Shown in pieces: positions 26,966 through 54,272 of a stretch of 64,000 bases of DNA. Source of the DNA: Clostridia bacterium (lineage in GTDB: Bacteria > Bacillota > Clostridia > Oscillospirales > Acutalibacteraceae). The stretch spans positions 35,759 through 99,758 of the forward strand of contig JAFXAP010000013.1 in the NCBI GenBank assembly GCA_017516965.1, given 5' to 3'. The notes under the pieces were generated by a model. That model worked only from the letters and a program-made list of their open reading frames with translations, searched no databases and was not told the origin of the DNA. Positions within the stretch are counted from its first letter, which is position 1. The number at the start of each line of letters is the position of its first letter. The translations under genes and the position numbers were made by a program.

Positions 26966-26999
26966 ATAATACCACAACCGCTATACCAAATTTGGTACA
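26966..26999 (-). promoter_or_regulatory. Island operator-promoter 1 (phosphoesterase/PolC-like unit)
   Basis: Palindrome TATACCAAATTTGGTACA (26982-26999) lies 16 bases upstream of the minus-strand -10 box TATTAT (plus 26966-26971). The core TACCAAATTTGGTA is perfect. The same palindrome lies about 60 bases upstream of the rightward dGTPase start, so it may serve both directions. Confidence 0.8.
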
Positions 27000-27015
27000 T
27001 AGAAATATTTTTTGT

Positions 27016-27044
27016 TTGAGAATATCTGCTATATGTGCTATAAT
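27016..27044 (+). promoter_or_regulatory. Promoter of the dGTPase/DUF2779/DUF262 operon
   Basis: TTGAGA (27016-27021) and TATAAT (27039-27044) with a 17-base spacer. The operator palindrome at 26982-26999 would be centred near -60. Confidence 0.7.
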
Positions 27045-27064
27045 GACTTAAAAGAGGTGATGTT

Positions 27065-28261
27065 ATGCTTAATTACGAAAGTTTATCTGAACAAATCGCT
27101 TTAAAAATAAAAAAAGACCGAGAAAATAATTCTCTGCCAAAGATTGCTTTTAATGAAGATAATATCATTCGCCGTGACAATGCCAAAGACAAGGCTAATA
27201 TTATACGTACCGCATTTATTAGAGATATCGATAAAATAATTCATTGTCCTTATTATAACCGATATGCTGATAAAACACAGGTGTTCTCTTTCTATAAAAA
27301 CGATGATATAACAAGACGCGGTTTACACGTTCAGTTAGTGTCACGTATTGCTCGTACAATTGGCAAAGCTTTGGGATTAAATCTTGATTTGATAGAAGCG
27401 ATAGCTTTAGGTCATGACATCGGGCACACACCATTCGGTCACGCAGGTGAAGATTTTTTGAATGAACTATTATTTTTGCATACCGGCAGACATTTCAGCC
27501 ATAACATTCATTCGGTGCGTGTGCTAGATAAAATATTTCCTTATAACATATCTCTTCAAACATTAAATGGTATTGCCGCTCACGATGGTGAAATGGAACT
27601 ATCAGAATATTATCCTCAAACACTTGATAGTTTTGAGGATTTTGATAAGCAAATTGAAAACTGTTATATTGATAAAAGAAATGTTCGCAAACTGACGCCC
27701 TCAACTCTCGAAGGCTGTGTAATGCGAATATCAGATATCATCGCATATTTAGGTAAAGACAGACAGGATGCTGAAAAGGCGGACATTCTCAAAACCAATG
27801 CTTATGAAGATTGCGCAATCGGCACATATAACGCTGAAATCATAAATAATCTTATCGTCAATATTGTCGAAAACAGTTACGGCAAGCCTTATATTAAAAT
27901 GGATATTGAACATTTCGACGCGCTAAAAAAAGCAAAATCCGATAACTACGATTTGATTTATAAAAACGATATAGTCAGAGCAGAAATGGAAACTACTGTT
28001 AAACCTATGATGAACAATATGTACGAAAAGTTACTTTCTGACTTAGTTAGTAAAAACAAATCATCGCCGATTTTTACCCATCATATTGACTACATAAACA
28101 AAGCGCACTATAAACGCGAAATGCCTTATAGCCAAACCGAACCTAATCAAATAGTCGTTGATTATATTGCAAGTATGACCGATGATTATTTTATTGATTT
28201 ATATGCGCATTTGTTTCCTGAAAGCGACCTGAAAATAATTTACAAGGGGTATTTCGACTAA
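27065..28261 (+). CDS. dGTPase-like HD-domain dNTP triphosphohydrolase
   Basis: The 398-aa protein has the HD superfamily signature ALGHDIGHTPFGHAGE and the upstream Asn-Arg-Gln segment YYNRYADKTQVF of dGTPases, then IAAHDGE and MRISDIIAYL. Such enzymes split dNTPs to deoxynucleoside plus triphosphate. In bacteria some act in phage defence by draining dNTPs. It is the first gene of a rightward operon with nuclease and DUF262 genes. AAAAGAGGTG precedes the ATG. Confidence 0.85.
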   Translation: MLNYESLSEQIALKIKKDRENNSLPKIAFNEDNIIRRDNAKDKANIIRTAFIRDIDKIIHCPYYNRYADKTQVFSFYKNDDITRRGLHVQLVSRIARTIGKALGLNLDLIEAIALGHDIGHTPFGHAGEDFLNELLFLHTGRHFSHNIHSVRVLDKIFPYNISLQTLNGIAAHDGEMELSEYYPQTLDSFEDFDKQIENCYIDKRNVRKLTPSTLEGCVMRISDIIAYLGKDRQDAEKADILKTNAYEDCAIGTYNAEIINNLIVNIVENSYGKPYIKMDIEHFDALKKAKSDNYDLIYKNDIVRAEMETTVKPMMNNMYEKLLSDLVSKNKSSPIFTHHIDYINKAHYKREMPYSQTEPNQIVVDYIASMTDDYFIDLYAHLFPESDLKIIYKGYFD

Positions 28262-28279
28262 TATTTTGGAGGTTTTGAG

Positions 28280-28486
28280 ATGCAAAAATATAAAATAACA
28301 ATGGATAATTTGGATGGTACATTCGAAGTCGTTTGGGAAAAGAAATCAACTGAAGAAACTATGACCGAAGAGTTTTATAAAGTTATAAAAGGGCAACAAA
28401 AAGTTAGAAAAGCAGACCCCACAATTAAATGGCGCATAATCAGAGTGTTTGACGAGTTAGGACACCAAATACGTCAAGAAAGTTAA
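28280..28486 (+). CDS. Small hypothetical protein
   Basis: A 68-aa charged protein, MQKYKITMDNLDG..., with no motif that I recognise. A strong TTTTGGAGG site precedes the ATG, and the gene lies 18 bases after the dGTPase-like gene, so it is probably real and co-transcribed. It contains a WKIIR-like basic C-terminal stretch (KWRIIRVF). Confidence 0.7.
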   Translation: MQKYKITMDNLDGTFEVVWEKKSTEETMTEEFYKVIKGQQKVRKADPTIKWRIIRVFDELGHQIRQES

Positions 28487-28522
28487 TTTATTTTCATTTT
28501 AAATTTGAAGCTGGTGATTTTA

Positions 28523-30019: not shown

Positions 30020-30031
30020 AGGAGAAAAATT

Positions 30032-32008: not shown

Positions 32009-32016
32009 TCATTTTT

Positions 32017-34334: not shown

Positions 34335-34769
34335 TTACTCAAAATAATCAGCTACCAAAACATAAATTTTGTATTTTTCTTTTTGTTCGGTTATATATAC
34401 GTTCCAATAAAAATATTCCGCTTTTGATTTTTCTTTTATTAAATCATTACAGGCTTCTATTTCTTCAGGGTTGTCTGCAAGTTCATTAGTTGTAATCACA
34501 CAAATAACATGTGTGCCCGTGGGAATAAATTCGAGAATTTCAGTTGTTACGCTTGTAAGATTATCTCCGGCATGCACTCTAAAATCAACTGTATTACGCC
34601 CTACTATACAGGATTTAAAATCCTCAATATCTAATGCCGCTAACCCCACTTCCTTGTTTATAAGTGTTAAAAAATCCGCATAATTTATTATATCTTCTTC
34701 AAGTATATCAAAAAAAAGGGTCTCGTTTTTCAAAATAGAATTTATATTATACTTATCTTTTAAATTCAT
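34335..34769 (-). CDS. Unknown 144-aa island protein
   Basis: The product has no motif I can name with confidence. The alternating pattern VDFRVHAGD, HVICVITTNELAD and NVYITEQKEKYKIYVLVADYF suggests a mixed alpha/beta sheet domain, loosely like the C-terminal domain of FtsZ/tubulin-type proteins, but this is only an impression. Start was set at the ATG with AAAGGAT upstream. It follows the 339-aa gene by 5 bases and is under operator 2. Confidence 0.6.
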   Translation of the reverse strand: MNLKDKYNINSILKNETLFFDILEEDIINYADFLTLINKEVGLAALDIEDFKSCIVGRNTVDFRVHAGDNLTSVTTEILEFIPTGTHVICVITTNELADNPEEIEACNDLIKEKSKAEYFYWNVYITEQKEKYKIYVLVADYFE

Positions 34770-34774
34770 ATTTT

Positions 34775-35794
34775 TTATCCTTTCTTTTCCTGCTCTACCC
34801 ACACGCCGCTTTTATCTTGAAAAACGGCATACTGCGTTGAGTCGGTAAGATTATGAATTATTCGGCTGAGCGCCTTTCTTTCAAGTGAAATTTCATAAGG
34901 GTATTCACTTAACTTTTTCAAAATGTCATTTTGTCTTAAATGGGTTTTCGAGTTAGAATATTTAGACAAAATTTCAAACACAAAAAGAGGAGCCAGACTC
35001 TTACGGGTGTTTGCTTTTTGTGGACGATATAGTTCGTCTAATTCTTCCTCACTCATAAGTTCCATTTTTTCAAGTTGAAGGCGACGAGTGCTATCTACAC
35101 ATTCGCGAGAAATGCCATATTCATACAAAAGCATAGAAGTTGCCAACGCGCAGGCTTCATTACGAATGATAATTTCTGGCGCTTTTAAATTTATAAGACG
35201 GCAAAGGCGCATTGAATACAAAATAAAATCGTACGCGCAAAGTTTTTTGCCTAATCGTTTTTCAGCATCGCTATAAACCGTTTCAACGTGATTTCTGCGA
35301 TATTTTTTCTCTTCAGGCGTTACCGCTATATCAATATAATCGGTTAAGATTTGTCGTTCCTTTTCGTCAAGTTCCTTTCCTTTTGCGAAATTTTCAGCTA
35401 TACTACGCACCCATTCTATAGTTTCAAGGCGGTCGGTAATATCCAGAACTTTTTCAAAATCTATATCACCGATATCAAATGGACGAATATAAATATTCCA
35501 AAAGTCTGCTAACTCTTTGCCTAAAACTTTTTTAGAAGTATCATAAGTACCATCAAGTTTATTTTCAAGAGCGCCTATTTGTTTTATCGCATCAAAATGC
35601 TTTGTGAACTTATCCATTAAGCTTTCATATTTGCTTAAATTCCAATCCACATGGCAGCGATAATCCTCGCATTTTTCGCTAAAAGAAGGAACGTATAGCA
35701 CACCATCTTCGTCTGTGCGTTCAAACATAAGGGTTATTAAATCAAAGGGGGAAATTCTTTCATCATCCATACTATTTATTATTTTTTCATCCAT
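34775..35794 (-). CDS. Unknown 339-aa protein with a C-terminal winged-helix like that of WYL regulators
   Basis: Residues about 1-260 are helical and unrecognised (some AGN-poor acidic repeats, SRECVDSTRRLQLEKME). The last 70 residues, FVFEILSKYSN...DILKKLSEYPYEISLERKALSRIIHNL, resemble the helix-turn-helix of the island's WYL protein (ILQIFKKYSD...ERKAISRNISLL). So a DNA-binding C-terminus is likely, without a WYL domain. AAGGAG precedes the ATG. The gene is under operator 2. Confidence 0.65.
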   Translation of the reverse strand: MDEKIINSMDDERISPFDLITLMFERTDEDGVLYVPSFSEKCEDYRCHVDWNLSKYESLMDKFTKHFDAIKQIGALENKLDGTYDTSKKVLGKELADFWNIYIRPFDIGDIDFEKVLDITDRLETIEWVRSIAENFAKGKELDEKERQILTDYIDIAVTPEEKKYRRNHVETVYSDAEKRLGKKLCAYDFILYSMRLCRLINLKAPEIIIRNEACALATSMLLYEYGISRECVDSTRRLQLEKMELMSEEELDELYRPQKANTRKSLAPLFVFEILSKYSNSKTHLRQNDILKKLSEYPYEISLERKALSRIIHNLTDSTQYAVFQDKSGVWVEQEKKG

Positions 35795-35826: not shown

Positions 35827-35860
35827 ATTATATCAGACGTTATGTACCCTATTTGGTACA
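35827..35860 (-). promoter_or_regulatory. Island operator-promoter 2 (339-aa/144-aa unit)
   Basis: Palindrome TGTACCCTATTTGGTACA (35843-35860) lies 16 bases upstream of a minus-strand TATAAT (plus 35827-35832). Confidence 0.8.
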
Positions 35861-35896: not shown

Positions 35897-36280
35897 CTAT
35901 TTCCCAAAACACAACCTTGCTTCTTTAAGAATTTGATAAATATTTCCCAATCCAAAACTATTACCATAACAAAGAATTCCGCAAGCAGACGGAATAACCT
36001 TTATAAGTTCTCTGCGTTTTGCATTATCATCTGTAACCACATATATATAGTCACAATTTAAAGCAGCTTTTTTTGTAAGTGTTTTTAATTCTTCAAAAGA
36101 GCGTTCAACTTCGATTATAAAGGCATAAGTTTTATTATTCTTTTTAAATGTTATATCGCTACAAAACCAATAATCGTTATCATTTGTTATCTCATCAATA
36201 CCCTGCGAACCTGCCCAAAGCCATACGGCACCAAATAATAATTCTTTTTTGTTGGGTGTTTCAATCTTTCTTTCAGCCAA
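35897..36280 (-). CDS. Unknown 127-aa protein, possible PD-(D/E)xK-like fold
   Basis: WFCSDITFKKNNK...AFIIEVERSFEELK has an Asp then E-V-E spacing seen in small PD-(D/E)xK nucleases. CDYIYVVTDDNAKRREL follows as a Rossmann-like strand. No family can be named firmly. It overlaps the 311-aa gene by 8 bases and is the last gene of the ligase unit. Confidence 0.55.
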   Translation of the reverse strand: MAERKIETPNKKELLFGAVWLWAGSQGIDEITNDNDYWFCSDITFKKNNKTYAFIIEVERSFEELKTLTKKAALNCDYIYVVTDDNAKRRELIKVIPSACGILCYGNSFGLGNIYQILKEARLCFGK

Positions 36281-37208
36281 TTTGTATATCCTCCATAAAC
36301 TTTTGATATTCGTTATTTAGATGGGTGGTTGCTTCACTTAACCCACAAACCGAACATTCAAATTCTTTTTCCGCCAAAGATTTGCGACCACCGCCTTTAT
36401 ACCAAGGTTTTTCTAAAAACATAATAACCTGTCTATCTATTTTATTTGTACAGCATACTATTTCAGATAAATCAATGCTGTCATCTAAAAGTTCTAAAAA
36501 ATTAGATACAATAAGAGGTTTCTTCACTCGGTTTAGATTTCTTATTTTTTCAGCTCTGGACCAAAAATCCGCAATACTTATAAAACTCAAATAATGATAA
36601 ATCACCTTTTCGCTTTCGCTTAGAAAAACTTTTTCATCATTATTGAGATAACCGACTCTAAACTCTCCATCTTTTGAAAGTTTTAAAAAAAGATCTTTGT
36701 CTTCACGCAATCTTATGGGTTTAAAATGCTTAATATAATTTGTAATAAAACCCCTAAAACTGCGGGTAGTACCGTAGCCATTTGTAAGTGCAGCAAAATT
36801 ACCTTGTGGGTAGTACTCTAACAAATCTTTATATCTGAAAAGTTTGTGAGGATAGTCTTGCCTTTTAAAGCGGTGAAAGAAAAGAGATGAATCCATTTCA
36901 TCATTTTGACGCACTAGTTCAAAATATTCTTTTGTACATTCGATGTTATCTGCGCAAACACAAACATTAAACAGCAATTCACCCCTATGTTTGCTACCAC
37001 TGATACAATAGGTTTTATCAAGCTCTACAACCGCTAAAAATTCAACGTTATAAAAACTGCGGGCGGCTTCATGCTTTCCAAGAAGTAATTTTATAATATC
37101 GTAAAGTTCAATACTACCTTTGACCACCGAAAGCTTTTTATTAAATCCAAGTCTTTCGGTGGTTTTTCCGTTTTTTTTGATTACTATTTGCTTAATATAA
37201 AGTTTCAT
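36273..37208 (-). CDS. Degenerate SMC/RecF-like ATPase domain protein
   Basis: The 311-aa protein starts YIKQIVIKKNGK...LGFNKKLSVVKGS, like the first strands of SMC/RecF/SbcC ATPases, but where a Walker A (GxxGxGKS) should follow it has KGSIELYDII. Later LSESEKVIYHYLSFISIADFW resembles an ABC signature plus helix, and KPLIVSNFLELLDDSID resembles a Walker B region. It ends in a Cys pair (CSVCG). It therefore looks like an ATPase fold that lost nucleotide binding. It overlaps the ligase gene by 4 bases (ATGA) and probably works with it. Confidence 0.6.
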   Translation of the reverse strand: MKLYIKQIVIKKNGKTTERLGFNKKLSVVKGSIELYDIIKLLLGKHEAARSFYNVEFLAVVELDKTYCISGSKHRGELLFNVCVCADNIECTKEYFELVRQNDEMDSSLFFHRFKRQDYPHKLFRYKDLLEYYPQGNFAALTNGYGTTRSFRGFITNYIKHFKPIRLREDKDLFLKLSKDGEFRVGYLNNDEKVFLSESEKVIYHYLSFISIADFWSRAEKIRNLNRVKKPLIVSNFLELLDDSIDLSEIVCCTNKIDRQVIMFLEKPWYKGGGRKSLAEKEFECSVCGLSEATTHLNNEYQKFMEDIQIG

Positions 37209-39192: not shown

Positions 39193-39226
39193 ATTATACA
39201 AATTCTTATGCACCTATTTTGGTGCT
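39193..39226 (-). promoter_or_regulatory. Island operator-promoter 3 (ligase unit)
   Basis: Palindrome TGCACCTATTTTGGTGCT (39209-39226) lies 16 bases upstream of a minus-strand TATAAT (plus 39193-39198). The site overlaps the stop codon of the upstream VWA gene. Confidence 0.82.
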
Positions 39227-44900: not shown

Positions 44901-45549
44901 CATCAAAATAGCCAAGGTACTGCTCATTTGCTTCTTTTGCCAAATGATATTTATGAAGCAGATTGCCCGATAGATATTCGTCGGCTGTTTCCCATCCTTT
45001 ATAAAAGCACTCATTCCAATGAAGCGGATTTTGATAAATAGAGCCTTTTAATGTTTCAATAACGGTTTTCATCTCTTCACCGGTAATTGATGAAATAAAC
45101 TCAATATCAACCATACCTAACGCATCGATAGAGAAAAGCAACCCATCAGGAATGCTGTCACAATGAATGTTTGCGCGGTAATCCTCTTTAAAAGAATTTT
45201 CATAATCAACCGGAAGGTCCATTGCCGTAACTTCTTCAACGTGTTTTTTATGTTTGGCAGCAGCGCGGGCAGCAGCGCGTTTTTCAGCGGCAACGCGACG
45301 TTTTTCATCTTCTGCAAGTTTCTTTTTAAGAAGTTCTGCTTCTTTTTCCTGAAGTCGTCTGCGCTCACGTTCTTTAATGTCCAACTGAGCGAGCTTCATA
45401 GATTCAATGGCAATATCTAAATCCTCTGCTGAAAAAATCTCAGTTCCGTTTTTAATATTTTCATAAAATTCAAACAACGCCTTGCGTTTTTGCTTAGCAA
45501 GTTCAACAGGGTCAAGGGTAGTATTTGCAATGTTTTTTGTATCGCTCAT
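41908..45549 (-). CDS. SNF2-type DNA helicase/translocase
   Basis: The 1213-aa protein has a lysine/arginine-rich N-terminus and a superfamily 2 SNF2 motor. Visible motor motifs are LLAHDVGAGKTYTMIAAG (Walker A), LFIDEAHNYKN, ATGTPITNS and REGRILRQGN (motif VI). A C-terminal coiled-coil rich region follows. Residues 25-51 (LFEFYENIKNG...) match the N-terminus of the adjacent LRR protein. Giant SNF2 proteins of this layout occur in mobile and defence loci. AAGGAG precedes the ATG. It heads an operon with the MoxR and VWA genes. Confidence 0.88.
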   Translation of the reverse strand: MSDTKNIANTTLDPVELAKQKRKALFEFYENIKNGTEIFSAEDLDIAIESMKLAQLDIKERERRRLQEKEAELLKKKLAEDEKRRVAAEKRAAARAAAKHKKHVEEVTAMDLPVDYENSFKEDYRANIHCDSIPDGLLFSIDALGMVDIEFISSITGEEMKTVIETLKGSIYQNPLHWNECFYKGWETADEYLSGNLLHKYHLAKEANEQYLGYFDDNIKAIEALLEPNIASNDIYITLGSPWVPTDIIDDFILHLIGLEKDSKGQYPIDAEPFLSKEYAVNHDDVTGLWDIPQKTRFRKSTLHGKYEELNYHVWGTEKMHMLYLLENIMNMKTLAVYDYVGPDKKTKILNSKETVKVLEKQDKMVAEFKNWVWQDKDRAQRLQGAYNRKYGNIRKRNFDGSFFEFPDMNPEIKLRPHQKNSVARIIFSDNTLLAHDVGAGKTYTMIAAGMELKRLGKSQKNMYVIPNNIMPQWRKMFLNMYPNANLLVVDRRNFNSKKRADTLNKIINEDFDAILITYSCFDMLSLSKKYYIEFYENQLEKLTKAKEKFSSEKAISAKRRAAFRALEKLEKDMTENVCEIPFDELGINTLFIDEAHNYKNVSLHSGIMRVRGITNKGSAKCDAMMDKVHCVQRQNSGGRVVMATGTPITNSITDLFIMQKFLQDGELEFLGIQNFDSWVAMFGKKVSEFEIDVDTNSYHLATRFAKFCNVPELTAILSSVSDFYHVDNSMGLPEFEGYSDSIAPGSDDFKDYLRDISNRADDVRKKRVDKKEDNLLKITTDGRKAALDMRLIDMVYGLDIDSKVYRCAENIMNIYENTRDKKLIQMVFCDSSTPKQSFNLYDELKSILVAMGIPEHQIAFIHEADSEDKKNLLFYDLRKGDISVVIGSTFKMGLGVNVQEKLCALHHLDVPWRPADMVQREGRILRQGNLCESVKIYRYITKGSFDAYSWQLLEKKQRFISQILSGEACDREGDDVDETVLNYAEVKALSVGNPLIKEKVEITNEIDKLRILQRDYILSRQRTEKELSELPEKIEAQKKRIAQTQEDIEYYRDNKINYKEMEYEAQKEIRDLIFAAVKVHRNQPIEKKVLTYQGFDVVVPQHMIPKTVNTRKNGDNEGEQKNKEPIPYVFVKRNGSYYMEIESHTGITKRLNNLLEDLPKAKIRREEVLDALLNKKAVLEAELAKKGESYATEIAALALRLEEIDKKLGVVA

Positions 45550-45579: not shown

Positions 45580-45613
45580 ATTTTACAAAAACTTATGTAC
45601 CTGTTTTGGTGCG
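45580..45613 (-). promoter_or_regulatory. Island operator-promoter 4 (SNF2/MoxR/VWA unit)
   Basis: Palindrome TGTACCTGTTTTGGTGCG (45596-45613) lies 16 bases upstream of a minus-strand TAAAAT (plus 45580-45585). It abuts the stop of the LRR gene. The leader after the -10 box (TTTAGAAAATCATAAGGAG) closely resembles that of the ligase unit. Confidence 0.8.
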
Positions 45614-46396
45614 CTAAACACATATTACTTTGGCATCACATTTTTCAAATTTTATATTTTCTCCAAACCGATAATGGTTATAAATTTCTTTAAGATTTGC
45701 GCAATCAATAAAAGCCTTATTATCTAAATAACCTTTATATATTTCAAGTTTTTCGAGAGATATGCATTTTTCAAAAACACGTGGATAAATATGTAATGTA
45801 TTCCACCCATATTCACTCTTTGGGGCACAATCCACCTCTTGTAGAGAACGACAATTACTAAACGCTTTAGTATATATATTTGAGATAGTGTCCGGCAAAA
45901 ACACTTTTTCAAGTGAAATGCAATTTTCAAAAGCGCTGGGACATATATTAGATATATTTGGTATATCAATTTCTTTAAGTGACAAACAATTTTTAAAGCA
46001 ACCTCGCCTTAGAATAATCTTACTTCTAGGGAAAACAACCTCTCGTAAATTTGTGCACCCTTCAAAAGCGTGTTCACCTATAGAACTACACCCATAGTTT
46101 ATAACAACCTTGACAATTTCTTTATTACCTCTGTAAGCATTGGTATCAATATGATCAAGATTATAAGGAAGCTGCAAAACCTTACCCTTAAAATCAAGGC
46201 TTGATGCCCTGTTTTTTATGGCTTGTAATTGCGCTTGTTGTAATCTTTTTTGTTCCTTCTTTTTTAGTTCTTCCTTTGCATTTTCCATTGTTTTTATTGC
46301 AATCTCTAAATCCTCAACCGATAGTATTTCTTTACCGGTTTTTATGTTTTCATAAAAATCAAATAACAGTTTATTTTTTAATTGTGTATCTGACAT
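45614..46396 (-). CDS. BspA-type leucine-rich repeat protein with the SNF2-linked N-terminal module
   Basis: The 260-aa protein lacks a signal peptide. Residues 11-37 (LFDFYENIKTGKEI...) share 19 of 27 positions with residues 25-51 of the SNF2 protein. A charged helix follows, and then about six BspA/LRR_5 repeats of the type IGEHAFEGCTNLREVVFP, CFKNCLSLKEIDIP and AFENCISLEKVFLP. BspA repeats are usually on surface proteins, so a cytoplasmic one joined to this module suggests a protein-binding subunit. AAAAGGAG precedes the ATG. Confidence 0.85.
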   Translation of the reverse strand: MSDTQLKNKLLFDFYENIKTGKEILSVEDLEIAIKTMENAKEELKKKEQKRLQQAQLQAIKNRASSLDFKGKVLQLPYNLDHIDTNAYRGNKEIVKVVINYGCSSIGEHAFEGCTNLREVVFPRSKIILRRGCFKNCLSLKEIDIPNISNICPSAFENCISLEKVFLPDTISNIYTKAFSNCRSLQEVDCAPKSEYGWNTLHIYPRVFEKCISLEKLEIYKGYLDNKAFIDCANLKEIYNHYRFGENIKFEKCDAKVICV

Positions 46397-46426: not shown

Positions 46427-46460
46427 ATTATAAAAAAATCAATGCACCAATTAAGGTGCA
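46427..46460 (-). promoter_or_regulatory. Island operator-promoter 5 (LRR gene)
   Basis: Palindrome TGCACCAATTAAGGTGCA (46443-46460) lies 16 bases upstream of a minus-strand TATAAT (plus 46427-46432). The dyad extends to 12-bp perfect arms (46437-46466), so in RNA it could also act as a hairpin ending the upstream SUFU transcript. Confidence 0.82.
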
Positions 46461-46474: not shown

Positions 46475-47239
46475 TTAACCGTTTTCTTTCATCCATTCAG
46501 ATATCATATCATAAGTTGTCTCTATTCCCTTTTGCTCTTGCTCGTCTAAATAATCACCTAGTTTTTGAAGTGTTGGTTTATCTACTCCTAAAATTGCCAT
46601 AACTTGATACTCGGAAAGTTCTTCATCATCTAAATTTTCAGGAATAAACATCTCTCGTTTAAAATCAACTCTTATCTCCTTTCCATCATACTTTTCGTGA
46701 AGTTTATCTAAAAACGCAAGGGTATTATTTTCAACACACCATTGACGTTCAGCTTCATAAATAGGAATAACTAATAAAAAGTTAACGGCTTCATCTATAC
46801 CGGTAAGACGTACCTTAATGGGTAATTTTAAAAAAGCAAAATAATCATAGCCGAATGCTTCTTTAAACTCTTTTGAAACATCCATTGTATGTCCCGTACC
46901 AAACCAGGTATCCTCACGGAATGGAAATTTGCTCATCTTTACAAGTTCTGATGCTAAAACCATTCCTTTTTTTGATGTTGAAACAAATTTTTTACTTGCC
47001 CACATTACCAATTCACATCTTTTTAAATTAGTTGGCGAATTCATTTCACATGCGCCCATTCCGCAAGTGACAAATACTTTTTCACCATCGGCTGTTTTAT
47101 GTAAAAGAGTGTCTGTGTGCACATATTCACTTTCGATTTCGTGAATTAAATAATCATAACTCGAACCAAAATTTTCTCTTGCAAACTTTTCAAGTTCCTC
47201 AAACTGTGTATCATTATATGTAAATGCTGCCTTATTCAT
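46475..47239 (-). CDS. SUFU (suppressor of fused)-domain protein
   Basis: The 254-aa protein matches bacterial SUFU-domain proteins: VFVTCGMGACEMNSP, CELVMWASKKF, WFGTGHTMDVS and FLLVIPIYEAERQW. These domains bind proteins and are common in toxin-immunity and defence loci; in bacteria the function is not established. AAAGGAAATATTT precedes the ATG. The gene follows the AAA ATPase gene by 13 bases in one unit. Confidence 0.85.
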   Translation of the reverse strand: MNKAAFTYNDTQFEELEKFARENFGSSYDYLIHEIESEYVHTDTLLHKTADGEKVFVTCGMGACEMNSPTNLKRCELVMWASKKFVSTSKKGMVLASELVKMSKFPFREDTWFGTGHTMDVSKEFKEAFGYDYFAFLKLPIKVRLTGIDEAVNFLLVIPIYEAERQWCVENNTLAFLDKLHEKYDGKEIRVDFKREMFIPENLDDEELSEYQVMAILGVDKPTLQKLGDYLDEQEQKGIETTYDMISEWMKENG

Positions 47240-47252: not shown

Positions 47253-49265
47253 CTAAGCTGTAAAGCCTATTTGAATTTTTTTAATTTCAGGTTTGTCCTG
47301 TAAAATTTCAATATCCTCTGCTGTAATGGTTATCAGCTCTTCATTACTAATATTATCAACATCCGCTTTCATAAGGCGGTTTGCCTGCGCCATTTTTGCC
47401 TTTTCAATAATATTGCGCGCAAATCTGCCATTGCCAAAATCGTTTTGCCTTTGCGCCTTGTCAAATACATTTTTTAGTTTTTCTTTGGCGTCGCTTGATA
47501 AAACAAATTTCTTTTCAGCCGCAATAAGTTCAGCAATATCGCAAAGTTCTTGTGAATTATAATCATCAAAATGAATATTAAAAGCAATGCGCGAACGCAA
47601 TCCCGGATTTTTGTTTAAAAATCCTTCCATTTTATCGGGATAACCTGCAAAAATCACAATAGTATCTTTTCGATTGTTTTCCATTTCTTGAACAATAGTA
47701 TTTATAGCCTCATCGCCAAAAAGACCATCACGGTCATCTACCAAAGAATATGCCTCATCTATGAACAATACACCTCCTTTTGCGCGTTTGAAGGCTGATT
47801 TTACAAGCGGCGCTGTTGAACCCACATATTTGCCAACAATATCAGCTCTGCCGACTTCGTATATATCACCATTTGTAAGCAATCCGTTTTCTTTCATAAT
47901 TTGTGCAAAGAGTCTGGCAACGGTAGTTTTTGCTGTACCGGGATTACCGGTAAAAATCATATGCATTGATGGGCGTTCAGCTATCATACCTCTATCGGCA
48001 AAAAGTTTTTGCGCCTTAAAATAGTTAAGAGCGTTATTCATAACTTCTTTTGCAGAATCAAGACCTATAAGCTTATCAAGTTTTTCATAAGCAGTGCCTC
48101 GTGGTTCTTCTTGCCTTATTTTAATCTTTGCAGTCTTTGTCATCTTGTATTCGGGATAAATCTCGTTTCTAAGTTTTTTAGAATACCAGTCATCAAAGAT
48201 ATGGTTAAGTTCGGTCGCTGTATATCCTTTTCCGGCTTCGATTAAAGAGGTCAATTTTTTATCTGTACGCACTTTATTTTCTTTTGCCTTCACTTTGAGA
48301 TAATTTTCTGCGACTGCTCCAAATGCAACATCTTCATAAATTTCAATAAAGGCTGTACTGCCGAAATTAAGCAAGAAATCCTCTTTTACTTTATTTGCTG
48401 TTTTAGGCAGACAAATAATTGTAAGCACTGAATTTTTGTATTTTACCGCAATATCACAAATAGTAGCAATAATATCTGTTCCCCGTTTTGAAAACTGGTT
48501 ATCATCATTATCTGAGTCGATATATCTGATAACTACCGCTCCGCCTGCGCTCGAGCGATAAAGAGCCTCAAAGGTTGCGTCGGGAAATCTGCTTTCACTA
48601 TCATAATCAACAAAAGAGTATCGCTTGTTTTTTATTCTTCCTTTAGCATAAAGCGCCGACAACAAAGATTTATATATCGTGTTTCTTATATCGCGATTAT
48701 CTGCTCTTAATATGTAGTGAACGGGATGTCCGCTGTTTTTGACAACACTGGATTTTTGAATTCTGTCAAGCTCGGGGTGCATAGTATTTTCAAACAATAA
48801 TTTGCTTGCAATCATTTTGCAGTCGTTGATGGTTAAAGAATCATCAATTATTGCTTCACCAAACTCATAGCTTCCACGATGAGGTTGAAGCCTATCAAGT
48901 TCAAATCGCTCTAAAATTTCGTCATCATCAATGATATAGGAATTACGCTGTGCGCATAATAACAAAGACTCTAACGAAGCAAATGTGGTTTCTTCGATTT
49001 TAAATGAGGTAATTTGAAAGATGGGTTCTTTTATATACTTTTCAAATTGTGCCTTAACTGTATCGTGTGATTTTGAAATGACTGTAAAAACTGCTGAATC
49101 ATCTCTTATTAAAACTGTTGCAATAAAGCATTGCCCTGATGATTTATAAAAGAAATTCTCGCTCCTTTCAGCAAGGCAACTGCAAATACCTCTCTTTTCA
49201 CGAGAACTTAATTCATTTTCACCCTCAGGCATTTCTCGTTTGGCTTCAATCTTGTAAAACACCAT
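47253..49265 (-). CDS. CbxX/SpoVK-type AAA ATPase
   Basis: The 670-aa protein has a long N-terminal region (about 1-370) with no clear motif and a C-terminal AAA domain. Motifs are Walker A FTGNPGTAKTTVAR, Walker B GVLFIDEAYSL, VIFAGYPDKME and the arginine region NPGLRSRIAFNIHF. CbbX/CfxQ/SpoVK ATPases remodel partner proteins. Start is set at the ATG after GGAGGTAAA, 15 bases inside the first in-frame codon. Co-transcribed with the SUFU gene, under operator 6. Confidence 0.87.
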   Translation of the reverse strand: MVFYKIEAKREMPEGENELSSREKRGICSCLAERSENFFYKSSGQCFIATVLIRDDSAVFTVISKSHDTVKAQFEKYIKEPIFQITSFKIEETTFASLESLLLCAQRNSYIIDDDEILERFELDRLQPHRGSYEFGEAIIDDSLTINDCKMIASKLLFENTMHPELDRIQKSSVVKNSGHPVHYILRADNRDIRNTIYKSLLSALYAKGRIKNKRYSFVDYDSESRFPDATFEALYRSSAGGAVVIRYIDSDNDDNQFSKRGTDIIATICDIAVKYKNSVLTIICLPKTANKVKEDFLLNFGSTAFIEIYEDVAFGAVAENYLKVKAKENKVRTDKKLTSLIEAGKGYTATELNHIFDDWYSKKLRNEIYPEYKMTKTAKIKIRQEEPRGTAYEKLDKLIGLDSAKEVMNNALNYFKAQKLFADRGMIAERPSMHMIFTGNPGTAKTTVARLFAQIMKENGLLTNGDIYEVGRADIVGKYVGSTAPLVKSAFKRAKGGVLFIDEAYSLVDDRDGLFGDEAINTIVQEMENNRKDTIVIFAGYPDKMEGFLNKNPGLRSRIAFNIHFDDYNSQELCDIAELIAAEKKFVLSSDAKEKLKNVFDKAQRQNDFGNGRFARNIIEKAKMAQANRLMKADVDNISNEELITITAEDIEILQDKPEIKKIQIGFTA

Positions 49266-49297: not shown

Positions 49298-49331
49298 ATT
49301 ATACGATTTGTTATGCACTAATTTTGGTGCA
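49298..49331 (-). promoter_or_regulatory. Island operator-promoter 6 (AAA/SUFU unit)
   Basis: Palindrome TGCACTAATTTTGGTGCA (49314-49331) lies 16 bases upstream of a minus-strand TATAAT (plus 49298-49303). Confidence 0.82.
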
Positions 49332-49341
49332 TAGAGAAACG

Positions 49342-49389: not shown

Positions 49390-49406
49390 AAATATGCGAG
49401 TCGCTT

Positions 49407-51173
49407 CTATTTAGATAGTGGTTTGTTTGGATATTTCCACACTTGAGTTATCATAGTAACCATCTCTTTAGAACGATTAACTATTTCTTCTTCTGTAAAC
49501 TTTTCGAGTTTAGCTAATGATGAACTTAAATTGATAGGAGAAAACTTGTATCCATATCTTTTGCCGTTGATTTCATTTTCCATATCACGCTTAACTGAAA
49601 ATCGATAATTTTGATACGGACTATTATAACCCGTTAGCGTTAAATTCCCAATCGTGTGAACATATTTTTCTTGAATATCTTTCCAATTATCGCCTAAATC
49701 ATTCGCCCAATCCAATTCTTCTTTTGTTTGAATGGATATGTCATTTCGCGCATATAATTCCTCGTGCGAATAGATTGTTTGAGGCATAATATGTTCAATA
49801 CTATGGTCGCCTTTGCGATAGTCTTTATTTATATTTTGTTCCATTCTTTCTAACCAAATACCAATTTGCTTATGTTTGATTTTGAAGAGTGGTCTTGTTA
49901 ACAATTCGTTTTGTAATTCTTTATCAGTAGGCATTGATTGATTGTCAGTAAGACTATGTATGCAATTTATAAGATTATTAACTGAGTCTGTACTTCTCTG
50001 TATTTTAATATATGCTGCAGTCTTAGAATCTCTACCATACATTTCTCTCCTTACGACATATGATTCGATTATTTTTAGCATTTCGGAAGCATCTTCTTCA
50101 CTTATCGCATCAATAGATTTGTTATGTATTATTTGCAATATAGCGGGAGTAAGCTTGTATTGATTTGTAAGTTTAATTCTGTATAGAAGTTTTTTAAACC
50201 CTATAGAAGTTTCATTTACATCAATCCACAATTTATAATGTTTTGAAAATTCAAATATTTTCTTAACAGCTGTTAATGTGTTTTCGTAGTCCATATTATG
50301 GTGATAATCTTTGAATATATCATAATAGTCGTCAGGTAAATTGTCTTGTGTTAAAACACCTACATAATAATATATGAAATTTTTTAATTCCTTGACACCT
50401 GCTTTGTCTAATCCAAAACTTTTTTCCATTGGTAGCCAATATTCGTCATATATTTTTTTCTGCTGTTCATTATTTAACTTCATCAATATGTAGTTTCTGA
50501 TTTTATCCGCCGTATCAAGTTCTTTACCGGTAGTATTTACCGTTTCAAAAACTAATTGCGCATCATCACTTTCATCAATACTTACATTTGCTAAAGCAAA
50601 TTTTCCAATACCTTTGTAAACAATCAATGGGTCAATATCTTTCTTTTTTAATTCGGATAAAAGTATATTATAATTTGAAAAGACTGTATTTTCTTCTATG
50701 TCATTCGGCAAGCAACGTGTTTCTAATAAATTTTTGTAAACTTTAAAGTCCAAATCAGTCAATTTCAGTTTGTAATATTCGTCGGTATTCGCATACCATT
50801 CATTTACCAAAAAAGAGTTTTTTATTTCTCTAAAAGAAAGATGCTCTCTTATACATTCTTCCTCTGTTAATTTTTCTTTTGCATAATCCGCTAAAGCAAT
50901 AAGAAGAAGAGATAAAGTAGTTAATCGTTGTTGTCCGTCAATTATATGATATTTATTTAATATGCCCGCACCAGAGTCTCCAACCCCCATATAAATAATA
51001 GAACCTACAAAATGCTTTTCTCTTTTCTTGTCGTTAGACACATCTATAACATCCTGTAATAGTTTTATACATTGATTAGTTTCCCACGAATACTTCCTTT
51101 GATATACAGGTATTTGATATTGGACACTTCCTTCTTTTAGCATTTTGAAAACATTAGATTCTTGAATATGCAT
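49407..51173 (-). CDS. DUF262-DUF1524 fusion (GmrSD-type) nuclease
   Basis: The 588-aa protein has the DUF262 parts IPVYQRKYSWE and IIDGQQRLTTLSLLLIA, and a classic C-terminal DUF1524 HNH set: HSIEHIMPQ, TIGNLTLTGYNS and YRFSVKRDME. This is a complete single-chain GmrSD-type enzyme. In phage defence these use nucleotide hydrolysis to cut modified phage DNA. It has its own promoter with a different palindrome, so it seems not to belong to the main island regulon. AAGGAG precedes the ATG. Confidence 0.92.
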   Translation of the reverse strand: MHIQESNVFKMLKEGSVQYQIPVYQRKYSWETNQCIKLLQDVIDVSNDKKREKHFVGSIIYMGVGDSGAGILNKYHIIDGQQRLTTLSLLLIALADYAKEKLTEEECIREHLSFREIKNSFLVNEWYANTDEYYKLKLTDLDFKVYKNLLETRCLPNDIEENTVFSNYNILLSELKKKDIDPLIVYKGIGKFALANVSIDESDDAQLVFETVNTTGKELDTADKIRNYILMKLNNEQQKKIYDEYWLPMEKSFGLDKAGVKELKNFIYYYVGVLTQDNLPDDYYDIFKDYHHNMDYENTLTAVKKIFEFSKHYKLWIDVNETSIGFKKLLYRIKLTNQYKLTPAILQIIHNKSIDAISEEDASEMLKIIESYVVRREMYGRDSKTAAYIKIQRSTDSVNNLINCIHSLTDNQSMPTDKELQNELLTRPLFKIKHKQIGIWLERMEQNINKDYRKGDHSIEHIMPQTIYSHEELYARNDISIQTKEELDWANDLGDNWKDIQEKYVHTIGNLTLTGYNSPYQNYRFSVKRDMENEINGKRYGYKFSPINLSSSLAKLEKFTEEEIVNRSKEMVTMITQVWKYPNKPLSK

Positions 51174-51218
51174 ATTTAGATCTCCTTATATTTAAAACTG
51201 TAAATTTTATTTTCGACA

Positions 51219-51250
51219 ATTATAACATATTGCGACATTTTTCGCAATAT
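51219..51250 (-). promoter_or_regulatory. Promoter and distinct palindrome before the DUF262/DUF1524 gene
   Basis: Arms ATATTGCGA and TCGCAATAT (51227-51235 and 51242-51250) surround a 6-base centre, 2 bases upstream of a minus-strand TATAAT (plus 51219-51224). This covers the spacer and -35 region, a repressor-like position, and is unrelated in sequence to the TGCACC palindromes. Confidence 0.65.
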
Positions 51251-51265
51251 TATCAGTAACCTTTT

Positions 51266-52246
51266 TCACTGATACTTTTCTCCTGCCGCTTTCAGATTTC
51301 CTTTTATCTTTTCTCTAAGCGTTGTGGGCTTTATTATTTCTACATAGTTAATATACTGCATTGCCCAATGTTCCATTGCAAGTGGACTGGCTTTAACAGA
51401 AACTGTTATATTTTCATTATCAAGTTCAATTATTCTTATCTCATTACCAAACCAATCAACTATTTGGTCAATAATGCTTTTTTTGGCAATGAACTCAATA
51501 TTTTCTACCATATCGGTATACATATATGGCAGCGATGTAGCAAGAACCTTATAATTTATACCGCTCTCAAAACCTTTAATCGTTGTAATAGGAGTAGCGG
51601 CTATTTCAACCACTGTCATATTAGAAATATGATCGACACGATAATACACCAAATTTTTAAAATGCTCGTTATAAGACATCAAGTAATACCGCTGATTGTG
51701 AAGAATAAGTTGATATGGTGTTACCTTATTTGTACTGCTTTTATGTAGTTTTTTATCAAGTCCGTATTTATTATAATCAAATTTAAGCTGTACTCTGCGG
51801 TCAATAGCATCGTCTATGAGCTCAATGTTATAAAAAAGCGCCTGATTATCAGTTTTTGACCAATCATTTACCGAGTATATATTTTTAACATGTGAACGAA
51901 AATATTGGTTAGACATATTGCAAAGTTTGTTTATCAAATCTTTAGAGTGTCTGGCGGTTATATACTTACTTGAAAGCACGCCGTCAATTAACATACGAAG
52001 CTCGCTATCTTCAAACTCTCGTTCTTCAAGATAACTTCCCGCTTTCGTTGATTCAATTTCATAACCTGCTTCTTTAAGTAAAGATATATTACGGCTTATG
52101 GCTTTTCGCTCAAGTGTAATACCATAATCACTTTCAAGATACTCTGCAATATCTTCTTGTAAAAGAGGATGGTCATAGTCACTGTATTTTTTAAATATTT
52201 GCAAAATACGAATAAGTGCTAATTTTTTAGGTTCTAAACTTTCCAT
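51266..52246 (-). CDS. WYL-domain transcription regulator
   Basis: The 326-aa protein has an N-terminal helix-turn-helix (about 5-70; LQEDIAEYL...ERKAISRNISLLKEAGY), a WYL domain (about 150-235; QLILHNQRYYLMSYNEH, YYRVDHI) and a WCX extension (about 255-320; SPLAMEHWAMQY). WYL regulators bind palindromes as dimers and several sense single-stranded DNA or nucleotides (for example DriD, BrxR, CapW). Start is set by AGGAGG before the ATG at 52246, not an in-frame codon 117 bases upstream. It is preceded by operator 7 and is the obvious candidate to bind all nine sites. Confidence 0.92.
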   Translation of the reverse strand: MESLEPKKLALIRILQIFKKYSDYDHPLLQEDIAEYLESDYGITLERKAISRNISLLKEAGYEIESTKAGSYLEEREFEDSELRMLIDGVLSSKYITARHSKDLINKLCNMSNQYFRSHVKNIYSVNDWSKTDNQALFYNIELIDDAIDRRVQLKFDYNKYGLDKKLHKSSTNKVTPYQLILHNQRYYLMSYNEHFKNLVYYRVDHISNMTVVEIAATPITTIKGFESGINYKVLATSLPYMYTDMVENIEFIAKKSIIDQIVDWFGNEIRIIELDNENITVSVKASPLAMEHWAMQYINYVEIIKPTTLREKIKGNLKAAGEKYQ

Positions 52247-52274
52247 AAAGAAACCTCCTAAATATGATAATATT

Positions 52275-52328
52275 ATTTTATCATATTCTTTATTTAAACG
52301 CAATACCCAATGCACCAAATCAGGTGCA
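52275..52328 (-). promoter_or_regulatory. Island operator 7 and promoter of the WYL gene
   Basis: A minus-strand promoter TTGCGT (plus 52298-52303), 17-base spacer, TAAAAT (plus 52275-52280), with palindrome TGCACCAAATCAGGTGCA (52311-52328) just upstream of the -35. The dyad extends to 12-bp perfect arms (52305-52334). Unlike the other sites it has a recognisable -35 box, so the regulator gene can be transcribed at a basal level. The -10 box is also inside a small dyad (ATGATAA/TTATCAT). Confidence 0.75.
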
Positions 52329-53396
52329 TTGGGTGCTTTTAATTTCGTAGCAGAATCTATCATTTAGTTTTTCAGCTGCTTTTACAAACCAAGTATTATC
52401 AGGTTCTATTTGTAACACGTAAAAAATCTTGCCCTCAAGATGCGAAAAATAACTATGAATATTTGGCTTTCCATAATTTATATATTCAGACTTGTTACCT
52501 TTAACAATGCTGTCTGCAAGACCATATTTTATTGCGTAATAAACTTCCTGACGAAGTTGCCTTTTATATTCTTTAGGGATTGAAACCTTTTCGTTAACAG
52601 TCAAACCAGTAACCCTTTGACTTGATGAATTGGTTATGAATTTGGTTTTTTCTTCGTTTAGCTCAAATCCACGTTCTTCAAGCATGTTTTTTACCTTTAT
52701 ATAAGCATTATATAAAGGTGAATTAGCAGAAAAGGTAAGGTCATCACAATAGCGGGTATAAGTTATGTTTCTTTTTTTGCACCAAGCACCGATAATATCA
52801 TCAAAATTTTTCATCACAATATTTGAAAGTGCAGGAGAAGTGGGTGCACCTTGTGGTAAAACATCGTTAAGACAGCAAAGTGAAGACAGCATTGCACCGA
52901 TTTGAGTGGGAAATCTTTTTCTATTAAAAGCCGTAGATAATACCTGTAAATATGTAATGCTACCAAAGAAGTCGGTTATATCCATTTTTAGTAAATATTT
53001 ATGATTTGTGTGGGGTTTGGCATTATCTTTTAAATTCTTACCTTTTACATAAGCGGTGGCATAAGGAGAAATTTTAATATTATTTAAAATATTTTTAAGT
53101 ATTTGAAGTTGAGCGTGTTTTAAATTGGCGTCGGGTGAATAAATGTATCTAAGTCCGCCATTTTTCTTTCTAAGCATAATTAGTTTATAATGTTTTCGTA
53201 TGTTTTTAGATAATTCAAAAACGTCTTTGTGAAAAATACGAAGTTCATTGGCTAACTGATAGGTATCGTATATAAATGGGGTATTGTGTTGTTTATAATG
53301 TTTTTTCACCATACTTGAGGCTTTAAAAAAACCATGCTTTTTCAAAAAATGCATATCCTGCTGCTCAAATGAAACTGTGAATTTATTTAACTTCAT
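52320..53396 (-). CDS. Retron-type reverse transcriptase
   Basis: The 358-aa reverse transcriptase has the RT blocks GGLRYIYSPD, LLKMDITDFFGSI, PQGAPTSPALSNI and the catalytic YCDDLTFSA (216-219 is YCDD). The retron-specific region X motif NAKPH (125-129) and region Y motif VTG (262-264) are both present. This separates it from group II intron and DGR enzymes. GGAGG precedes the ATG, about 18 bases after the retron RNA. Its 3' end overlaps operator 7. Confidence 0.95.
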   Translation of the reverse strand: MKLNKFTVSFEQQDMHFLKKHGFFKASSMVKKHYKQHNTPFIYDTYQLANELRIFHKDVFELSKNIRKHYKLIMLRKKNGGLRYIYSPDANLKHAQLQILKNILNNIKISPYATAYVKGKNLKDNAKPHTNHKYLLKMDITDFFGSITYLQVLSTAFNRKRFPTQIGAMLSSLCCLNDVLPQGAPTSPALSNIVMKNFDDIIGAWCKKRNITYTRYCDDLTFSANSPLYNAYIKVKNMLEERGFELNEEKTKFITNSSSQRVTGLTVNEKVSIPKEYKRQLRQEVYYAIKYGLADSIVKGNKSEYINYGKPNIHSYFSHLEGKIFYVLQIEPDNTWFVKAAEKLNDRFCYEIKSTQCT

Positions 53397-53414
53397 AATT
53401 CGCCTCCAAAAATC

Positions 53415-53586
53415 CCCCCTACAGTACTAAATGACATGATAAATACGAAGATGGGTGTGGCGTTATGGAATAACGGATGACCCATTGAAGGATTTATCAG
53501 GTGAGAAACTCGGCTCGGAAATGTGCCTCAGACAGCGACTCGCTGCCCGCCTTGAATCGCTTCAAGCTGTACGCTACTGTAGGGGG
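53415..53586 (-). ncRNA. Retron msr-msd RNA
   Basis: A 12-bp perfect inverted repeat, TACTGTAGGGGG and its complement (plus 53575-53586 and 53415-53426), gives the a1/a2 stem. On the minus strand a1 ends in TAGC, with the candidate priming G at 53574. Two msr hairpins follow (53551-53566, CTTGAA/TTCAAG; 53531-53547, CAGCG/CGCTG). A nested msd hairpin lies at 53437-53499, with stems TGATAAAT/ATTTATCA, ATGGGT/ACCCAT and CGTTAT/ATAACG. The reverse transcriptase gene starts about 18 bases past a2. Confidence 0.9.
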
Positions 53587-53604
53587 ATGATTTATTATGT
53601 TGTA

Positions 53605-53638
53605 ATTATAATATATACCTTGCACCAAAAGTGGTACA
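53605..53638 (-). promoter_or_regulatory. Island operator-promoter 8 (retron)
   Basis: Palindrome TGCACCAAAAGTGGTACA (53621-53638) lies 16 bases upstream of a minus-strand TATAAT (plus 53605-53610). Transcription would start about 12 bases before the retron a1 repeat. Confidence 0.85.
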
Positions 53639-53641
53639 CAA

Positions 53642-54193
53642 TTATTTTAATTCAGCTTTTTTTAAATCAATATATAATTCTGCTGAATAGTCTTGTCCAA
53701 ACATATCATCAATGTAAAGAAAGTAATCTTTTTCTTCGTTCATAGAAAAGATATTTGTTTTGATAAGCGGATCAACGCCATTACAAGGACCGTCATCCTC
53801 ACCATGTATATGAATATTATTGAGATTGCTTTCTATTGCAATAAACCAATCGGTTATAAATTCACTTTCCATCTCAAATGCAAAATCTTTTCCAGTAAAA
53901 GCATTACGCAGAGATTCCATAACATTATAGAGACGATTTTTATCAAGACATTCAAAGTCATCAACAAATTCTTCGTCCATCATATCATCAGCATATTTTT
54001 TCATATGAATAATGTAACCCTCTCCATCAAACATAGCATTTTTTGAAAAAGCAAATTCTTTTATCAATTTTCTAAATTCTTTTTTTCCTTTTTCAAAACT
54101 TTCAAATACCGTATAGGCGCATTCGAGACCGCTTGAATTTATACATACCTCCGGTAGCGATGTTTTTATTGATAACACCCAAACTTCTTTCAT
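53642..54193 (-). CDS. Unknown 183-aa acidic island protein
   Basis: No known domain is recognised. The sequence is acidic (DDMMDEEFVDDFECLDKN) with aromatic strands near the C-terminus (YFLYIDDMFGQDYSAELYIDL). Start is set at MKEVWVL, preceded by TTTGGAG; a GTG 9 bases upstream has worse spacing. It has its own perfect operator and stops just before the retron operator, so it is next to, but not obviously in, the retron transcript. It is a candidate retron partner or a separate effector. Confidence 0.6.
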   Translation of the reverse strand: MKEVWVLSIKTSLPEVCINSSGLECAYTVFESFEKGKKEFRKLIKEFAFSKNAMFDGEGYIIHMKKYADDMMDEEFVDDFECLDKNRLYNVMESLRNAFTGKDFAFEMESEFITDWFIAIESNLNNIHIHGEDDGPCNGVDPLIKTNIFSMNEEKDYFLYIDDMFGQDYSAELYIDLKKAELK

Positions 54194-54238
54194 AATTAAC
54201 ACTCCAAAATATTATTTGCAACTTTATGTTACAGGTAC

Positions 54239-54272
54239 ATTATACTTGCCACTTTGCACCAAATTTGGTGCA
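54239..54272 (-). promoter_or_regulatory. Island operator-promoter 9 (183-aa protein)
   Basis: Perfect palindrome TGCACCAAATTTGGTGCA (54255-54272) lies 16 bases upstream of a minus-strand TATAAT (plus 54239-54244). This is the best match to the consensus and marks the right end of the regulon. Confidence 0.85.

What the first reader, a model, noticed from the sequence alone, without database searches (positions are those of the whole stretch)
26966..54272. A nine-site palindrome regulon spanning a 28-kb accessory island
Seen: nine copies of TGYACC-N6-GGTRCA (with 1-2 arm mismatches in some) lie at 26982, 35843, 39209, 45596, 46443, 49314, 52311, 53621 and 54255. Each lies directly before a leftward transcription unit. 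In eight the operator end is exactly 16 bases from a consensus -10 box, so every operator-plus-promoter block is 34 bases long. No canonical -35 is present in those eight: the operator replaces it, centred near -32. Family knowledge: WYL regulators bind palindromes and several govern phage-defence loci (BrxR, CapW) or respond to single-stranded DNA (DriD). Inference: one regulator, most likely the WYL protein encoded here, controls all units together. The lack of -35 boxes favours activation, but occlusion by a repressor is not excluded. I do not know of a described regulon with this gene set.
Basis: partly seen in the sequence, partly recalled or inferred. Interest (0 to 1): 0.92.

Follow-up and report, generated by a model that had tools for sequence, protein, structure and literature searches.

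The report
WYL-linked promoter regulon across defence genes
Eight near-identical 34-base switches, probably bound by one WYL-type regulator protein, stand before a retron, a DNA ligase and other defence- or repair-like genes in a gut bacterium, and the same switch stands near the same regulator in many related species, which suggests a shared on-switch for a whole defence island.

Summary
Operator + 10-bp gap + -10 box occurs 8 times in the window (0.01 expected) and nowhere else in the own genome at ≤2 mismatches. The ninth site (52311) precedes the WYL gene but lacks the fixed -10. A matrix from the eight window sites alone finds 62 places near WYL relatives, in 31 of 49 loci (26 of 39 protein clusters), against 1 in reversed sequence. 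Genes behind the operator differ between species: CbbX-like AAA+, SNF2 helicase, FtsH-like, PolC-like, LigA, retron, NADAR and others. Target promoters lack a -35 box; the palindrome is centred near -31.5 at a fixed distance from the -10. This is the layout reported for the WYL activator DriD, not for the repressors BrxR and CapW. In relatives, the operator before the WYL gene lies inside a TTGNNN-17-TACAAT promoter (13 of 18 sites; 0 of 100 others), which predicts autorepression plus target activation. Binding, sign and ligand are inferred. Structure prediction never ran. Verdict: a new variant of a known kind, a WYL activator serving many dispersed defence-like units.

The parts
26966..26999 (-). 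operator-N10-(-10) block before metallophosphoesterase (26249-26953) and PolC-like protein (24046-26247)
   Evidence: 2 mismatches; genes by Pfam and NCBIfam
35827..35860 (-). block before ORF 34775-35794 (C-terminal HTH like that of the WYL protein, no WYL domain) and ORF 34335-34802
   Evidence: 0 mismatches; HTH E 6e-13
39193..39226 (-). block before LigA-like DNA ligase (37205-39160) and two ORFs of unknown function (36273-37208, 35897-36280)
   Evidence: 1 mismatch; Pfam
45580..45613 (-). block before SNF2-type helicase (41908-45549), MoxR-type AAA (40796-41908) and DUF2201 metallopeptidase/VWA (39214-40809)
   Evidence: 2 mismatches; Pfam
46427..46460 (-). block before LRR protein (45614-46396)
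   Evidence: 0 mismatches; Pfam
49298..49331 (-). block before CbbX/SpoVK-like AAA+ protein (47253-49262) and SUFU protein (46475-47239)
   Evidence: 1 mismatch; Pfam and NCBIfam
53605..53638 (-). block before the retron RNA and reverse transcriptase
   Evidence: 0 mismatches
53402..53600 (-). retron msr-msd RNA (approximate bounds), closed by a long a1/a2 stem
   Evidence: fold z -4.28, 0 of 200 shuffles as stable; no Rfam match
52320..53396 (-). retron reverse transcriptase, Ec107-like
   Evidence: PADLOC RT_Ec107-like E 7.6e-116; Pfam RVT_1
54239..54272 (-). block before ORF 53642-54202, function unknown
   Evidence: 0 mismatches; no family match
52311..52328 (-). ninth operator, before the WYL gene, without a -10 at gap 10
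   Evidence: 0 mismatches; sequence
52275..52303 (-). likely WYL promoter TTGCGT-17-TAAAAT
   Evidence: read from the sequence; not tested
51266..52246 (-). WYL-domain regulator, 326 aa, proposed to bind the operators
   Evidence: Pfam WYL E 6e-10, WCX just under its cut-off; linkage to the motif

Best explanation
The WYL protein at 51266-52246 is a DNA-binding regulator, probably a dimer, that recognises ATGTACC-N6-GGTACAT-like palindromes and controls at least eight promoters of this island in trans. At target promoters the palindrome takes the place of the -35 element (centre about -31.5, 10 bp from the -10), so RNA polymerase binds poorly until the WYL dimer holds it there; it would be an activator of the DriD/SiwR kind, switched on by a nucleic-acid ligand such as ssDNA made in phage attack or DNA damage. 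At its own gene, in most relatives with a site there, the operator lies inside an ordinary promoter, so binding would shut that promoter off: autorepression with target activation. Shown here: sites, spacing, lack of -35, restriction to the island, linkage to the WYL clade, co-divergence with the recognition helix, overlap with the WYL promoter in relatives. Inferred: binding, sign, ligand, purpose.
For: 8 blocks against 0.01 expected, none elsewhere in the own genome at ≤2 mismatches. Window-only matrix: 62 places in 31 of 49 WYL loci, reversed control 1. Gap 10 gives 36 pattern sites, gaps 5-9 and 11-15 give 1-8 each; operator-only selection gives 94 of 218 at gap 10, at most 22 elsewhere. 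-35 match ≤3 of 6 in 108 of 109 sites of the loci. Operator overlaps TTGNNN-17-TACAAT in 13 of 18 WYL-upstream sites and 0 of 100 others, p 1.2e-13 (related loci, so the p-value is too small). Sister-clade half-site change with the same spacing. DriD promoters: site over the -35, constant distance to the -10, 1-2 of 6 -35 matches (PMC12340889). Ten distant SNF2 homologues have no site, five of eight close ones do.
Against: No binding or expression data. 10 of 49 WYL loci have no site. Among 300 family genomes 93 have a pattern match at ≤2 mismatches, with reversed-pattern matches in many genomes too, and the profile hits 49 of 295 genomes without a close WYL; G161 has a good site before its CbbX-like gene but no WYL found (85% complete). 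In the window itself the WYL promoter does not overlap its operator. One of the two arginines needed for ssDNA in PafBC and SiwR is His here. No HTH family was recognised by Pfam in the N-terminus. The 92 of 100 non-WYL sites with a -10 at gap 10 were chosen by a matrix that includes the -10.
Confidence: 0.7

Rival explanations
1. The WYL protein is a repressor of all units, like BrxR and CapW: it sits between -40 and -23 and blocks polymerase, and a ligand releases it. The -10 with a weak TG extension suffices for transcription.
For: Known WYL regulators of defence loci repress (BrxR PMC9122601, CapW PMC9122588; passages read). The aligned sites show a weak TG before the -10. In relatives the WYL promoter itself is overlapped.
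Against: BrxR's site lies just downstream of a -10 and CapW's overlap the -10; here it replaces the -35. A blocked promoter needs neither a missing -35 nor an exact gap; both hold across species.
Confidence: 0.2
2. Another regulator binds the operators, for example ORF 34775-35794 or a protein elsewhere, and the WYL gene is only a neighbour or a target.
For: ORF 34775 has the same kind of HTH. Some genomes without a close WYL have sites.
Against: The HTH-only protein was found in 3 of 50 sequences scanned, window included, the motif in 31 of 49 WYL loci. The half-site changes with the WYL recognition helix.
Confidence: 0.07
3. The blocks are copies of a mobile or duplicated promoter cassette without common regulation.
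For: All eight are 34-base blocks on one strand.
Against: The gap and flanking sequences differ from copy to copy; across species only operator, -10, their distance and a few weakly preferred bases are conserved.
Confidence: 0.02

Closest known systems
DriD of Caulobacter (WYL activator; PMC12340889: passages and section 11 read)
   Same: Palindrome over the -35 region, constant distance to the -10 in all promoters, poor -35 matches, several promoters under one WYL protein
   Different: Other operator (ATACGAC-N7-GTCGTAT), a handful of DNA-damage genes, no defence island; DriD is said not to be placed to control its own gene, whereas here relatives have an operator in the WYL promoter
SiwR of mycobacteria (WYL activator; PMC10693628: passages read)
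   Same: 19-bp imperfect palindrome reaching from the -10 to the -35 region; activates; WYL arginines needed
   Different: One adjacent operon; other lineage and sequence
PafBC (PMC11804915: passages read)
   Same: WYL activator that replaces the need for a proper -35 contact; ssDNA ligand
   Different: Heterodimer with a large regulon; sigma adaptation was not testable here
BrxR and CapW (WYL repressors of BREX and CBASS; PMC9122601 and PMC9122588: passages read)
   Same: WYL regulator within a defence locus, palindromic operator, autoregulatory site
   Different: They repress, with operators on or just below the -10, at one or two sites
RptR (defence-island repressor; PMC12255303: outline and abstract only)
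   Same: One regulator for a defence island
   Different: Not described as a WYL protein; represses the island promoter through direct repeats of TAGCTA

Membership tests
WYL-domain transcription factor | WYL domain followed by WCX | tested here: met
   Pfam WYL E 6e-10 above cut-off; WCX 22.4 bits, just under its cut-off of 23.9; profile of the clade finds WYL/PafBC chains in the PDB
WYL-domain transcription factor | N-terminal HTH | tested here: inconclusive
   No Pfam HTH match; weak NCBIfam BirA-type match E 0.028 and MarR-type PDB match E 0.056; structure prediction not run
DriD-type activator | Operator over the -35 region at constant distance from the -10, poor -35 | tested here: met
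   definition from PMC12340889 section 11
DriD-type activator | ssDNA binding by the WYL domain | tested here: inconclusive
   R203 present in 37 of 38 clade members; position 206 is R in 24, H in 13 (H here), K in 1
DriD-type activator | Activates transcription by contacting RNA polymerase | not testable with these tools
   needs purified protein
BrxR/CapW-type repressor | Operator on or just below the -10 of the target promoter | tested here: not met
   Target operators lie at about -40 to -23; met only at the WYL gene's own promoter in relatives, 13 of 18
Retron (Ec107-like RT) | RT of the retron clade | tested here: met
   PADLOC RT_Ec107-like E 7.6e-116
Retron (Ec107-like RT) | msr-msd RNA upstream of the RT, closed by an a1/a2 stem | tested here: met
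   Predicted fold with long closing stem, z -4.28; no Rfam match; prediction only
Retron (Ec107-like RT) | msDNA made | not testable with these tools
   needs an experiment

The most novel reading that the evidence does not exclude
A dual-mode WYL master switch of gut Clostridia: it represses its own promoter and, on meeting a nucleic-acid alarm, activates a mix-and-match set of defence and repair units (retron, LigA, PolC-like, SNF2-MoxR-VWA, CbbX-like AAA+), while a WYL-less HTH protein from the same regulon (34775-35794) competes for the same operators as an off-switch.
Probability: 0.3. Interest if true: 0.82.

Novelty: new variant of a known kind. Interest (0 to 1): 0.7.

Why it matters
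Defence islands hold many unrelated systems, and how they are switched on together is an open question. Here one identifiable regulator and one short DNA code appear to couple a retron, DNA-repair-like enzymes and several uncharacterised AAA+/helicase units, with counterparts in at least 26 WYL clusters. The code is a practical handle: a gene behind this 34-base block in these bacteria becomes a candidate defence or repair gene, including many of unknown function. It would also carry the activating WYL layout, reported in Caulobacter and similar in mycobacteria, into a third lineage with many natural promoters to compare.

Tried and rejected
Structure prediction of the WYL protein (alignment A2) was asked for twelve times and the machine was busy each time, so no fold comparison was made. 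Rfam gave nothing for the retron RNA and only a tRNA in the window. The tRNA at 22524-22597 was considered as an integration site; no exact repeat of 14 bases or more of its 3' part was found elsewhere in the window. A scan of viral contigs found no relative of the WYL protein; seven viral contigs hold the exact 34-base pattern and were not followed up. An empty-site comparison was inconclusive: in G066 homologues of two flanking genes lie close together, at 37-52% identity and in another orientation; G180 and G254 gave no match to either. Operators 41520 and 58707 were rejected (inside genes, no -10), and so was the profile hit at 63699 (inside a gene). Phages and plasmids collections were not searched. 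Papers: retron + WYL as whole words gave 2 papers, listing only; retron + WYL + DNA ligase gave 2 unrelated papers; some searches were seen as listings with abstract starts; none of the titles or abstract starts shown describes a WYL regulon with this gene set.
Full report
Observation. Operator alone at ≤1 mismatch occurs 11 times, 0.22 expected; operator, 10 bases and TATAAT at ≤2 mismatches occurs 8 times, 0.01 expected. In the whole own genome the 5 exact operators and all 8 full blocks at ≤2 mismatches lie in this island. At 2 mismatches the bare operator is common (157 places, reversed control 61), so specificity rests on operator plus -10. A profile built from 57 sites of other species (A1, R1) has five island sites as its best hits in the own genome; the other three blocks follow at E 0.0088, 0.0091 and 0.071, mixed with a hit inside a gene of the window (E 0.0068) and two outside (0.036, 0.068).

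Gene units. All eight blocks read leftward, into: metallophosphoesterase and PolC-like protein; ORFs 34775 and 34335; LigA and two unknown ORFs; SNF2, MoxR and DUF2201; an LRR protein; CbbX/SpoVK-like AAA+ and SUFU; the retron RNA and RT; ORF 53642. The retron RNA starts about 10 nt below the expected start point, is closed by a long stem and folds with z -4.28. In L099 and L105 an RT also follows the operator, with a 239- or 338-nt gap that folds with z -1.94 and -4.52. The RNAs of the window, L099 and L087 share CAGCGAGTCGCTG, and L105 has GGCGAGTCGCC. In L087 the only site found is before the WYL gene, so its retron is not behind one: 3 of 4 retrons seen are. The + strand genes HD, DUF2779, GmrSD1 and GmrSD2, and GmrSD3, have no block of their own; HD starts 66 bp from the operator at 26982 on the other side.

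Link to the WYL protein. A search of genome contigs with the WYL protein gave 49 loci, mostly Clostridia MAGs, many from animal guts by their titles. They are not all independent: 39 clusters at 90% WYL identity. A matrix from the eight window sites alone finds, above 14 bits, 62 places in 31 loci (26 clusters) against 1 in reversed sequence. After refinement on these loci there are 109 places in 39 loci (34 clusters); 10 loci have none: L091, L094, L111, L113, L115, L116, L118, L119, the partial L128 and the distant L129. With the plain pattern gap 10 gives 36 sites in 24 loci, gaps 5-9 and 11-15 give 1-8 each, reversed pattern none at ≤2 mismatches. With operators chosen by operator columns alone, TANNNT stands at gap 10 in 94 of 218 readings (each palindrome read both ways), at most 22 at other gaps. 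Consensus: ATGTACC-RAAWTT-GGTACAT-N9-TATAAT, with a purine preference 7 bases below the -10.

Genes behind the operator (first gene downstream by a simple script, clustered by BLAST): WYL itself in 17 loci plus the window; CbbX-like AAA+ in 14 loci plus the window (L133 with a doubtful distance of over 600 nt); an AAA+ family in 7 loci, one of which (L123) was scanned and is AAA plus peptidase M41; SNF2 in 5 plus the window (L120 at 435 nt); an LRR-type cluster in 4 (three of them one WYL cluster; L095 scanned), with the window's LRR protein falling in a separate cluster; PolC-like in 3; RT in 2 plus the window; HD in 2 (one WYL cluster); and others once or twice, among them LigA, NADAR and a YpsA/SLOG protein. 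Long gaps make some first-gene calls unsure.

Sign of regulation. Of 18 sites before a WYL gene 13 lie over a TTGNNN-17-TACAAT-like promoter; of 100 other sites none do (loci are related, so p = 1.2e-13 overstates it). The best TTGACA match at the usual distance is at most 3 of 6 in 108 of 109 sites of the loci and in all 8 of the window. 92 of the 100 other sites have a -10 at gap 10, but the matrix that chose them includes the -10. DriD promoters show the same layout (PMC12340889, section 11). SiwR's palindrome spans the -10 to -35 region and SiwR activates (PMC10693628 passages). BrxR's repeat lies just downstream of a -10 and CapW's overlap the -10; both repress (passages). Activation of targets with repression of the WYL promoter is therefore the preferred reading. 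In the window the WYL promoter (52275-52303) lies below its operator, so the role of the ninth site here is open.

Specificity. Sister WYL proteins (33-43% identity) have another recognition helix (such as DRKAVKRNLMNL) and in 6 of 18 upstream regions CCCAT-N9-TANNNT (L013 and L014 nearly identical), control 16 of 3600, window clade 0 of 43; L025 and L027 of that group keep the window-type site. A more distant group (27-32%) gave 0 of 7, yet G241 and G160, whose WYL relatives have about 30% identity, have a profile hit 30-50 bp before the WYL gene. Six loci (two clusters) with helix ERKTIGRN(L/I)ALL (L111, L112, L115, L116, L118, L119) have one weak site between them; L091, L094 and L113 lack sites without that helix. 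Among 300 family genomes the profile hits 54 at E ≤0.05: all 5 with a WYL at ≥55% identity (two of which, G057 and G146, appear to share contigs with training loci L098 and L132, by equal contig length) and 49 of the other 295. The pattern at ≤2 mismatches hits 93 of 300, with reversed-pattern hits in many genomes as well (not summed). In G057 and G069 good hits also lie on a second contig, so the regulon may reach beyond the island there. Of 8 close SNF2 orthologues 5, counting the window and a weak one in G015, have a site on the gene strand upstream, 1 only on the other strand, 2 none; 10 distant homologues have none (18 of the 30 numbered SNF2 loci examined). For CbbX-like genes I examined 9 of 28 loci: G000, G057, G161, G258 and G223 (two overlapping loci) have a site upstream, G015 one far upstream, G050 and G280 none.

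Ligand. The clade profile's PDB relatives are WYL proteins, among them PafBC and chains that I take from memory to be DriD. The arginine pair needed for ssDNA in PafBC and SiwR (passages) corresponds, by my reading of the motif, to R203 and H206 here; 206 is R in 24, H in 13 and K in 1 of 38 clade members. ssDNA is plausible, not shown.

A second HTH protein. ORF 34775-35794, itself behind the operator, ends in an HTH that matches the WYL profile's HTH (E 6e-13) with helix LERKALSRIIHNL. Relatives without a WYL domain occur in L095 and L126 (49 loci and the window scanned). Competition for the same operators is a guess from sequence.

Verdict. Real, regulon-like and tied to a WYL clade; activation in the DriD layout is the best reading (0.7 for the whole). 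New is the combination: one WYL regulator with many dispersed defence-like units including a retron, and two promoter layouts for self and targets. The paper searches showed no such regulon in the held library, which lacks most subscription papers.

Noticed in passing
window 51219-51250: Before the GmrSD3 gene (49407-51173) lies another palindrome, ATATTGCGA-N6-TCGCAATAT, 2 bp above a TATAAT, a CapW-like position; it is unrelated in sequence to the island operator.
   Followed up: no
window 34775-35794; L095 11955-13052; L126 18002-18388: Proteins with an HTH like that of the WYL regulator but no WYL domain.
   Followed up: partly
L132 10001-11032 (and L008): A WYL protein that looks chimeric: HTH of the sister clade, WYL domain of the window clade.
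   Followed up: no
window 24046-26247: A short PolC-like protein (PHP plus polymerase parts) that matches only positions 615-1299 of 1445 of the PolC model.
   Followed up: no
L090 16043-16516; L105 8530-9009; L123 5190-6470: In other species a NADAR protein, a YpsA/SLOG protein and an AAA plus peptidase M41 protein stand behind the same operator.
   Followed up: partly
L127 2417-3661: A second, different WYL-domain protein (414 aa) behind an operator.
   Followed up: no
L087 7026-7255: A retron RNA and RT near a WYL gene, with no operator above threshold before it.
   Followed up: partly
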